From: Candidatus Hermodarchaeota archaeon
GTDB taxonomy: Archaea > Asgardarchaeota > Hermodarchaeia > Hermodarchaeales > Hermodarchaeaceae
DNA length: 64,000 nucleotides
Direction: 5' to 3'
Assembly: GCA_016839805.1 (NCBI GenBank)
Contig: JAEOTO010000032.1
Coordinates: forward strand, 138,564-202,563
Of this stretch, positions 41,809-43,912 are shown piece by piece. Each line of letters opens with the position of its first letter. The stretch's first letter is position 1. The notes under the pieces were generated by a model. That model ran no database searches and was not told the origin of the DNA. It worked only from the letters and a program-made list of their open reading frames with translations. The translations under genes were made by a program, and so were the position numbers.

Positions 41809-43912
41809 TTGACCAAAAATCAACGCTTCGAAGAATTATCTCGACTCATGAAGAATCCTGATAATATTCGTAATATTGGAATCATTGCGCACATAGATCA
41901 TGGAAAAACTACTCTCACTGACTCATTACTTGCGAACGCCGGAATGCTCTCATCAAATCTTGTAGGCCAAGCTAGGGCATTAGATTTCTTGGAAGAAGAG
42001 CAACGAAGGGGAAACGTCTTAGCGGTAACTCGCAGATGCCCCAATAACCATAAAATCAGCTAACATCTCTCTTCTCCATGATTACCAAGGAAGACAGTAC
42101 GTAGTTAATCTAGTAGATACTCCTGGTCACGTTGACTTTAGTGGTAAAGTTACTCGGGCCATGCGCGCTATTGACGGTGCAATTGTTGTTGTAGATGCCG
42201 TAGAGGGTGTGATGGCGCAAACAGAAAGTGTGATTAGATCAGCAATTCGAGAGGCAGTAAAACCCGTTTTATTCATTAACAAGATAGATCGCCTCATCCG
42301 TGAATTGAAACTTTCAGCGAATCAAGTACAAGAAAGATTCATAAAAATAATCCAAGATGTAAACACCTTCATTTCGGCTTTCTTAGAAGTCTATGATGAT
42401 TCAGATTGGTCTGTTAGCCCAGATGACAATACTGTAGCTTTTGGTTCAGCACTTCACCGATGGGCATTTACGGTAAAACAAATGCAACAGGCGGATCTTC
42501 AGTTTCAAAACATCATCGAGTATTATCAAAATCAGACAATTGAAGATTTAAGCAAAAAACTTCCCATACACAAACCAATCCTGAATATGATACTCGAGCA
42601 GCTTCCATCTCCAAAGAAGGCACAACCATACCGTACTAATCGGATTTGGAGAGGTGAATCGGAATCGCCTGCGGGATTAGCGCTTCAGCAATGTGATCCG
42701 GACAATTCTCTAATCATAGGAATAACCAAAATTATTACAAAATCAAAACATGGTATAGTCGCAGTAGGTCGGCTTTTTTCAGGGACTATCCGAAGAGGAT
42801 CTCAAATCAGAATCTTTCCAAATGACACACTTTACAGAACTCAACGTGTTACACTTTTTATGGGGTCTCGACAAGTAGTTGTACCTTCCTTAACTGCAGG
42901 CAACATTTGTGGGATAACAGGCATTGAAAATCCGCAAGCTGGAGATACTATTACTGGACAAAATGTCCCTCGAGGGATGGTACCCTTTGAGGAAATAACA
43001 TATATCAACGAGCCCGTTGTAACCATTGCAGTAGAACCGAAACGCCCGAGAGAACTTCCTCGATTACTTTCGTTTCTTGAAATCGTAACCAAAGCTGACC
43101 CAAATCTAATATCTTCTGTTAATGAACAAACTGGAGAGAATTTACTTTCTGGTCTAGGACTTTTGCATTTAGAGATTGCATTAAAAGATATTGAAGAATT
43201 AGGAGTTCAAGTTGAAGCATCAGATCCAATCGTGCTTTACCGTGAGACTCCAAAAACTAACGTCACACTGCATGAATGGCACCTAAGCCCGAATGGGGAA
43301 AATGCTATTAAATTATCAATACACCCAAGGTCTATTAAACCAGTACAAGTCGATGTCTGGCAGCAAGATCCAAAGGGTAATGCTCTTCTGAATCTATCCC
43401 CTGTATTAGTACCTGAATCAGCAAAAAAATCAATTATTTCGGGATTTCACTGGGCCATGGAAAGGGGACCTCTTTGTGCTGAACCTGTAGGCCAAACACT
43501 CATTAGAATCCTGAACCTCAAGCTCAGCGAAAATATTACTTATCGAGGAAAGGTTGAGCTTATGTCAATGGTAAAAGAGGCAATTTTCGCAGCTTTTGAA
43601 ACTGCAGAAATGACTCTGCTAGAACCCATCTACTCAGTTCAAGTAACAATTCCCTCTGAATATCTTAAAGAAGTGACAGGAGCGATATCCTCAAGAAGAG
43701 GACAAATAGAAAATGTTGAACAAAAAGTTTCATTGATTTCAGTTTCAGGAATTTTGCCAGTCAGTGAGTCATTTGATTTAGCCGATGATTTTCGATCAAA
43801 AACATCAGGAAAAGCGATTTGGCAAACCAGATTTGCCCGGTGGAAGATTGTGCCTGACCAAAGAGTAGGGCCAATAATAACTAGTATAAGGAAAAGAAGG
43901 GGATTAGCTTGA
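41809..43912 (+). CDS. fusA: Elongation factor 2 (aEF-2), gene interrupted by a 31-nt putative intron
   Basis: The GTPase that moves tRNA and mRNA through the ribosome. Exon 1 (41809-42013, TTG start, GGAG upstream) has G1 AHIDHGKTT and ends in EEEQRRG. The frame then breaks. Skipping 42014-42044 joins it to the frame used from 42045 to 43912 and restores RGITIKSANISLLH, followed by DTPGHVDF and NKID. The spliced protein is 690 residues. In domain IV the diphthamide loop, normally DAIHRG, reads NITYRG, so Tyr (43541-43543) replaces the modified His. The C-terminus ends IRKRRGLA, near-canonical. Possibly a divergent aEF-2 paralogue; a frameshifted pseudogene is the alternative. Confidence 0.88.
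42014..42044 (+). other. Putative bulge-helix-bulge mRNA intron in aEF-2
   Basis: 31 nt. Exon GGGG (42008-42011) pairs with intron CCCC (42039-42042) as the four-base-pair central helix. AAA (42012-42014) and AAT (42043-42045) are the two 3-nt bulges. CGTCT (42015-42019) pairs with AGATG (42034-42038) as the inner helix. Cutting each bulge after its second base joins GGA-A to TA-ACC, giving Gly-Ile-Thr-Ile-Lys in frame. A clear outer helix is not seen. Confidence 0.82.

What the first reader, a model, noticed from the sequence alone, without database searches (positions are those of the whole stretch)
41995..42060. aEF-2 mRNA appears to carry a 31-nt bulge-helix-bulge intron
The aEF-2 frame breaks after EEEQRRG. 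Exactly 31 nt (42014-42044) separate it from the resumption at ITIKSANISLLH. These nt form the archaeal splicing motif: central helix GGGG/CCCC, 3-nt bulges AAA and AAT, inner helix CGTCT/AGATG. Cleavage after the second base of each bulge rejoins the frame with the conserved residues. Introns in archaeal protein genes are rare; the well-known case is cbf5 in Crenarchaeota, and I recall none in aEF-2. A 31-nt length excludes an intein. The outer helix is weak, so the motif is relaxed.
Basis: partly seen in the sequence, partly recalled or inferred. Interest (0 to 1): 0.95.

Follow-up and report, generated by a model that had tools for sequence, protein, structure and literature searches.

The report
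Splicing intron in archaeal elongation-factor gene
In an Asgard archaeon, a gene resembling that for the translation factor EF-2 is interrupted by 31 bases that are predicted to fold into the archaeal splicing signal and are likely cut out of the messenger RNA by the tRNA-splicing enzymes; short inserts of the same kind interrupt the GTP-binding motifs of EF-2 genes in four other Asgard families, whereas the papers seen here name only one archaeal gene confirmed to be split in its coding part this way.

Summary
Confirmed and extended. Window 42014-42044 is a 31-nt insert in switch I (RRG|ITIK) of an aEF-2-type gene. [quoted passage not shown] All four congeneric genomes in which the gene was found carry it at the same codon; the central helix changes from GGGG/CCCC to GAGG/CCTC. 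The genome encodes two EndA-type subunits and RtcB, and has tRNA genes with candidate BHB introns. The outer helix is absent, so the motif is relaxed. The gene is a divergent paralog; an intact second EF-2 exists in the genus.

Elsewhere, 12 Asgard genomes (these four included; five families as binned) have aEF-2 broken by 29-33-nt inserts at four sites in the G1, G2 and G3 motifs. In 12 of 12 one insert length alone restores the protein; a BHB cut coincides with it in 12 (10 strictly, 2 with one inner mismatch). Two sites have uninterrupted close relatives; in one lineage the interrupted EF-2 is the only one found. No RNA data were available, so splicing is inferred. Papers seen name cbf5 as the one confirmed archaeal coding-sequence case.

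The parts
41809..42013 (+). exon 1 of the aEF-2-type gene (TTG start; P-loop and N-terminal part of switch I, ends RRG + first base of Ile codon)
   Evidence: ORF; PF00009 profile positions 2-55
42008..42011 (+). 5' strand of the 4-bp central helix (GGGG), in exon 1
   Evidence: sequence; fold; compensatory change in congeners
42012..42014 (+). 5' bulge AAA, predicted cut after 42013
42014..42044 (+). 31-nt predicted BHB intron
   Evidence: only length 15-59 nt that restores RRGITIK; same length and place in 4 of 4 congeners in which the gene was found
42015..42019 (+). inner helix 5' strand CGTCT
42022..42025 (+). apical stem 5' strand GCGG (pairs with 42030-42033 TCGC)
42034..42038 (+). inner helix 3' strand AGATG
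42039..42042 (+). 3' strand of central helix (CCCC), in the intron
42043..42045 (+). 3' bulge AAT, predicted cut after 42044
42045..43912 (+). exon 2 of the aEF-2-type gene (rest of switch I, G3 onwards, domains II-V)
   Evidence: PF00009 55-186, GTP_EFTU_D2, EFG_III, EFG_IV, EFG_C; dN/dS about 0.16 against G004 over 42161-43909

Best explanation
The 31 bases at 42014-42044 are most likely an archaeal bulge-helix-bulge intron in the messenger RNA of an EF-2-type translation factor: the tRNA-splicing endonuclease EndA would cut after the second base of each 3-nt bulge and the ligase RtcB would rejoin the exons, restoring codons G-I-T of switch I. Shown here: the insert, its predicted structure, its conservation and a compensatory change in congeners, exact frame restoration by the canonical cuts, genes for two EndA-type subunits and RtcB, and tRNA genes with candidate introns of the same motif in the same genome. 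Inferred: transcription, cleavage, ligation, and that the spliced mRNA makes the working protein. Because the outer helix is absent this is a relaxed motif (HBh' in my naming), which heterotetrameric (alpha-beta)2 EndA, the type predicted here from two different subunits, is reported to accept in several archaea (PMC6379350, passages). The same mechanism would explain the inserts at three other sites in the GTP-binding motifs of aEF-2 in other Asgard families.
For: Motif, fold and cut. Conservation: the 4 congeners in which this gene was found (G000, G004, G002, G001) carry 31 nt at the same codon; no match to it was found in the fifth, G003 (75% complete). Central helix GGGG/CCCC in two, GAGG/CCTC in two; 94.2% of 52 cells paired against 28.8-44.2% when slid. 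Profiles: PF00009 scores 189 bits spliced against 53.9 and 118.4 for the pieces, which meet at profile position 55. Purifying selection: dN 0.051, dS 0.313. Machinery: two PF01974 genes in 7 of 8 family genomes and one in G003; RtcB in 8 of 8; the catalytic-type subunit's best solved match is 3p1z_B, a tRNA-splicing endonuclease, E 1.7e-45. Candidate tRNA introns with BHB in the same genome. Parallels at three other sites in 8 genomes; the only EF-2 found in G011 (95% complete), G047 and G052 is interrupted, and G027 of that genus lacks the insert.
Against: No RNA evidence at all. No outer helix in the window's genus. With four related sequences covariation is modest: 2 pairs with changes on both sides, 42 of 500 shuffles reach the covariation score; fold z-scores are only -1.5 to -2.6. 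BHB-like motifs arise often by chance: 39 of 49 strict motifs in the 12 scanned segments do not restore the frame. One (alpha-beta)2 EndA without the special loops, that of M. kandleri, handles relaxed motifs poorly (PMC6379350, passage); whether the subunits here have such a loop was not tested. The gene is a divergent paralog, and an intact second EF-2 exists in the genus, so this copy could in principle be dispensable.
Confidence: 0.93

Rival explanations
1. The gene is a decaying paralog and the 31 nt are an ordinary disabling insertion in a pseudogene.
For: It is a divergent paralog with an altered diphthamide loop, and an intact second EF-2 occurs in congeners.
Against: Same insert length at the same codon in 4 of 4 congeners in which the gene was found, with open flanking frames; dN/dS about 0.16; compensatory change in the insert; 69 of the 120 listed protein clusters, the window's own included, show a translation that breaks at the same place.
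Confidence: 0.03
2. The ribosome recodes the message: a programmed frameshift or a bypass hops over the insert.
For: In the window the exon-1 frame is open through the insert, so a late frameshift is formally possible.
Against: A frameshift would put about 10 poorly conserved residues (NVLAVTRRCP in G000, NVIANYRRRL in G002) into switch I. The site-C inserts carry in-frame stops near the junction: TGA in G198, a stop right after DTPGH in G142 and one residue later in G141. A bypass would be expected to use matched take-off and landing codons (recalled from phage T4 gene 60); here the codons are GGA and CCA. Neither explains the BHB cut coinciding with the only frame-restoring length at four sites.
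Confidence: 0.02
3. Two separate polypeptides are made and assemble as a split EF-2.
For: The protein database already holds the first piece as separate short entries, some named GTP-binding protein or elongation factor 2.
Against: The first in-frame ATG, GTG or TTG of exon 2 is at 42161, 116 nt into conserved coding sequence that contains the rest of switch I and the DTPGHVDF motif; the split falls inside the nucleotide-binding site.
Confidence: 0.01
4. Assembly or sequencing artefact.
For: The genomes are draft assemblies in many contigs.
Against: Assemblies of four species share it with substitutions, and 68 further protein clusters show a break at the same place.
Confidence: 0.01

Closest known systems
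cbf5 pre-mRNA BHB intron of Desulfurococcales and Sulfolobales (PMC2738675; section 8 part 2 and passages read)
   Same: Short (16-44 bp there, 29-33 nt here), too short for an endonuclease ORF, often a relaxed motif, disrupts the codon of a catalytic residue there and GTP-binding motifs here, linked to hetero-oligomeric EndA, patchy gain and loss.
   Different: Different gene (aEF-2 type), different phylum (Asgard); here one gene is hit at four sites, and splicing is not yet shown experimentally.
Archaeal tRNA BHB introns
   Same: Same 3-4-3 motif and cut points; candidates present in the same genome.
   Different: Host RNA is an mRNA, with no tRNA body to help recognition.
HVO_1309 5'-UTR BHB intron of Haloferax volcanii (PMC7714728; passages read)
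   Same: EndA substrate in an mRNA.
   Different: Lies in the 5' untranslated region; here the coding sequence is interrupted.
Putative 12-bp introns in protein genes of an archaeal virus, and other predicted protein-gene introns (mentioned in PMC2738675)
   Same: Short inserts in archaeal protein genes.
   Different: Splicing not demonstrated there either; the virus inserts may be translated in frame. The original papers were not seen.
Intein-like insert at the P-loop of an Asgard aEF-2 (G016, L091)
   Same: Same gene, and the same conserved HGK/TTL position as the site-A introns.
   Different: Would be removed by protein splicing; an in-frame element far longer than 31 nt.

Membership tests
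archaeal BHB intron | 4-bp central helix flanked by two 3-nt bulges on opposite strands | tested here: met
   GGGG/CCCC with AAA and AAT; central helix and 5' bulge predicted in all 4 congeners, 3-4-3 pattern found in all 4. Without an outer helix the 3' bulge is formally single-stranded
archaeal BHB intron | cleavage after the second bulge base on both sides restores the mature RNA | tested here: met
   rejoins RRGITIK; only length 15-59 nt that does; cleavage itself not observed, rule recalled
archaeal BHB intron | inner (intron) helix | tested here: met
   5, 5, 3 and 4 contiguous pairs in G000, G004, G002, G001
archaeal BHB intron | outer (exon) helix of the strict hBHBh' form | tested here: not met
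   0 contiguous outer pairs in the window's genus; 4 in G198, G141, G142 and 2 in G017, G070. Hence a relaxed form, not the strict one
archaeal BHB intron | splicing endonuclease and ligase encoded in the genome | tested here: met
   two PF01974 genes in the window's genome, RtcB
archaeal BHB intron | removal from RNA in vivo or in vitro | not testable with these tools
   no RNA reads available
(alpha-beta)2 EndA | one catalytic and one divergent structural subunit | tested here: inconclusive
   subunit on C26 aligns over residues 11-186 with 3p1z_B; the second matches more weakly and, read by eye, seems to lack the catalytic His; assembly not tested
intein | in-frame protein insert with splicing motifs | tested here: not met
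   31 nt, not a multiple of three
group I or group II intron | large catalytic RNA core | tested here: not met
   31 nt is far too short; Rfam was not run on it
aEF-2 (TIGR00490 equivalog) | score at or above the curated cut-off | tested here: not met
   708.2 against 738.45 bits, though by far the best family (next 285.6); treated as an aEF-2-type paralog

The most novel reading that the evidence does not exclude
BHB introns have repeatedly invaded one gene, aEF-2, in Asgard archaea, landing in its G1, G2 and G3 GTP-binding motifs at four or more sites by a site-selective process, and so place production of the translocation GTPase under control of the tRNA-splicing enzymes.
Probability: 0.4. 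Interest if true: 0.92.

Novelty: new member of a known kind. Interest (0 to 1): 0.85.

Why it matters
A 2020 paper states that, besides its own 5'-UTR case, the only BHB intron of this sort reported in archaea is in the cbf5 mRNA (PMC7714728, passage). A second well-supported host gene, in the phylum regarded as closest to eukaryotes, interrupted at four sites within its catalytic motifs, would turn an oddity into a recurrent phenomenon and make intron gain, loss and target choice testable by comparing relatives with and without the insert. It also means that aEF-2, a widely used phylogenetic marker (my own knowledge), is stored as short pieces in protein databases for such genomes.

Tried and rejected
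Pseudogene, frameshift or bypass, split protein and assembly error were weighed and rejected (see rivals). Intein and catalytic introns were excluded by length. A further copy of the intron in the genome was sought with up to 3 mismatches: only the known copy. Covariation at site D gave no changes on both sides among three sequences, only three pairs with one-sided changes and one pair mismatched in two of three, so it is no support there. The phylum scan printed only its best 160 rows; I re-searched 45 of the 227 genomes, chosen by eye, so the count of 12 interrupted genomes is a lower bound and the second EF-2 copies were not surveyed fully. G175 ends at its contig edge before the G3 motif and G015 proved uninterrupted in the stretch read; neither is counted. 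G045 was fetched but not examined. Many short EF-2 proteins in the database end in other places, some perhaps at contig ends or by frameshift, and were not counted as introns. Transfer of the intron from a tRNA was considered but not tested. A paper on archaeal EF-2 evolution that I recalled is not held, so nothing in it was seen.

Full report
OBSERVATION. The gene at 41809-43912 is of aEF-2 type. After GAAGAAGAGCAACGAAGGGGA the frame is broken by an insert; it resumes at ATAACCATAAAA. Of all insert lengths from 15 to 59 nt only 31 restores RRGITIK, and of the three equivalent cuts one, 42014-42044, is the canonical BHB cut. The 4-bp helix GGGG/CCCC lies between AAA and AAT; the inner helix has 5 pairs and the apical stem 4; the outer helix is missing. 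The fold is the minimum-energy and centroid structure, z -2.24.

CHANCE. Shuffling each insert 20,000 times gives a strict BHB at a frame-restoring cut in 0.01-0.32% of trials for the 12 genes, 0.32% for the window. BHB-like motifs as such are common: 49 strict ones were found in the 12 scanned segments, of which 10 restore the frame and 39 do not.

CONSERVATION IN THE GENUS. Five genomes of the genus are held. This gene was found in four (G000, G004, G002, G001; identity over 583 residues of exon 2: 100, 89, 68 and 62%) and all four have a 31-nt insert at the same codon. In the fifth, G003 (75% complete), only another EF-2 was found, and none of the three genomes of the sister genus matched at E 1e-60. 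Of 52 pair cells 94.2% are paired, against at most 44.2% when the partner strand is slid; two pairs change on both sides, one of them in the central helix (GGGG/CCCC in two genomes, GAGG/CCTC in two); 42 of 500 shuffles reach the covariation score, so the statistic alone is weak. The exon side of that change lies in an Arg codon and leaves the residue unchanged; the intron side matches it. dN/dS between G000 and G004 is about 0.16 over 42161-43909.

METAGENOME-SCALE PROTEINS. The 84-aa exon-1 ORF found 204 proteins, of which 120 were listed and all 120 fetched. Sixty-nine of these, the window's own included, contain EEQ[RKQ]RGN, that is they leave the EF-2 sequence at the same place. Only proteins were seen, so the intron in the 68 others is inferred. 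Sources name some of them Promethearchaeota, Hermodarchaeota, Thorarchaeota or Odinarchaeota.

THE GENE. The spliced protein matches PF00009 with 189 bits against 53.9 and 118.4 for the separate pieces, which abut at profile position 55, and shows domains II to V. TIGR00490 is by far the best family, 708 bits, but under its cut-off of 738. Aligned by eye, the loop that carries the diphthamide His in other EF-2 proteins (DPIHRG in L006; the role of that His is recalled) reads NITYRG here. A second, uninterrupted EF-2 is present in G003 and G006, and the C-terminal part of one in G002. In G000 only one EFG_C gene was found. So this is a paralog.

OTHER SITES. A scan of 227 genomes of the phylum with the N-terminal 140 residues of an intact EF-2 matched 217 (only 160 rows printed). 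Re-search of 45 genomes and reading of the loci gave, with the window's genus, 12 interrupted genomes in five families. Site A, P-loop Lys codon: G017, G070, 31 nt. Site B, switch I: the window's genus, 4 genomes, 31 nt. Site C, DTPGH|V: G198, G141, G142, 29, 31 and 33 nt. Site D, DTPGHV|D, four nt later: G011, G047, G052, 29 nt. In 12 of 12 one length alone restores the protein; in 10 of 12 a strict BHB falls on it, and in G011 and G047 the motif passes only with an A-C mismatch at the third inner pair. Central helices differ between sites and show compensatory changes at A and C: AUGG/CCAU and ACGG/CUGU at site A; GGUC/GACU, GGUC/GACC and GGCC/GGCU at site C. At site D there are none. The site-C inserts carry in-frame stops, so there the mRNA could not be read straight through. 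G027, of the same genus as the site-D genomes, has GTAGACTTT without insert; G041, G034 and G057 lack the site-C insert, although G041 is 90% identical in protein to the G198 copy. The G198 contig resembles family f11 rather than its own bin f29 and may be misbinned. G011 (95% complete), G047 and G052 have one EFG_C gene each, the interrupted one; G142, G141, G017 and G070 have two. An intein-like sequence sits at the site-A position in G016.

MACHINERY. Two PF01974 genes occur in 7 of 8 genomes of the window's family and one in G003, and two in 10 of 13 further genomes and one in the other three. The first subunit of G000 aligns over residues 11-186 with 3p1z_B, a tRNA-splicing endonuclease, E 1.7e-45; the second is more distant. 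I recall 3p1z as the Aeropyrum pernix enzyme; the table does not name the organism. RtcB is in 8 of 8. The genome has 23 tRNA matches, several of them over 90 nt; ARAGORN called no tRNA at six of those loci. In L137 a 32-nt BHB intron with 11 inner pairs, the longest inner helix of 12 candidate cuts printed, leaves 72 nt with acceptor, D and T arms; L134 has a 22-nt candidate, one of two. The choice among candidates is mine. A review says that (alpha-beta)2 enzymes accept relaxed motifs, with M. kandleri as a constrained exception (PMC6379350, passages), and archaeal pre-mRNA introns were tied to hetero-oligomeric EndA (PMC2738675, section 8 part 2).

LITERATURE. [quoted passage not shown] The same paper says that introns in other protein-coding genes were predicted but not confirmed, and mentions putative 12-bp introns in an archaeal virus (passages; the works it cites were not seen). 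PMC4810243 (2016, passages) confines archaeal pre-mRNA introns to Cbf5 homologs. PMC7714728 (2020, passages) names cbf5 as the only further case besides its own 5'-UTR intron. PMC11291895 (passages) reports introns in 92-95% of tRNA genes of three complete Asgard genomes; the passages shown mention no mRNA introns. PMC12397907 and PMC4090602 were seen in passages only and add no further coding-sequence case. None of the titles and abstract openings listed by searches concerns introns in archaeal EF-2; listings were capped and the library holds only openly licensed papers, so absence there is not proof.

MECHANISM AND LIMITS. I commit to EndA cleavage and RtcB ligation. Shown: sequence, predicted structure, conservation, frame restoration, presence of the enzymes' genes. 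Inferred: every RNA step. The recurrence in GTP-binding motifs parallels cbf5 and inteins, which also favour conserved active-site codons (the intein part is my own knowledge); whether this reflects targeting or only the difficulty of losing an insert there is open.

Noticed in passing
L091 (G016), around the P-loop of its aEF-2: An intein-like sequence (TPEHKFLV ... VVEGFFVHN) ends exactly at TTLADNLL, at the same P-loop position as the site-A introns.
   Followed up: partly
Proteins P0123-P0126, P0146 (database hits): EF-2 N-terminal pieces ending DTPGHC, one labelled Jordarchaeaceae, suggest a further insert at the G3 motif; no DNA seen.
   Followed up: partly
Proteins P0069, P0075, P0078-P0080, P0098: EF-2 N-terminal pieces ending at or within two residues of DTPGH; P0079 is labelled Lokiarchaeota and lies on a 274-kb contig. 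Possible site-C inserts; no DNA seen.
   Followed up: partly
Proteins P0071, P0073, P0076, P0095, P0107, P0110: EF-2 pieces that leave the EF-2 sequence just after EEQ or EEQxRG (P0095 labelled Helarchaeota), possibly more switch-I inserts.
   Followed up: no
Protein P0094 (704-nt contig): EF-2 N-terminus running into an RtcB-like stretch (PF01139); probably a chimeric contig, but curious given RtcB's role.
   Followed up: no
L121 (G189), EF-2 frame: An otherwise continuous EF-2 frame has a single in-frame stop after DRLIREL; not an insert, perhaps a mutation or sequencing error.
   Followed up: no
L145 (G000:C22:150034-150167): A tRNA match 134 nt long, suggesting more than one intron in one tRNA gene.
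   Followed up: partly
L036, L038: The second EF-2 has an altered diphthamide loop, HEDPAHTKAGQ, and a C-terminal extension.
   Followed up: no
window 37097-39952: Large protein with a HerA-type DUF87 ATPase domain, upstream of the EF-2-type gene.
   Followed up: partly
window 43944-44423: SLOG (LDcluster4) family protein directly downstream of the EF-2-type gene.
   Followed up: partly
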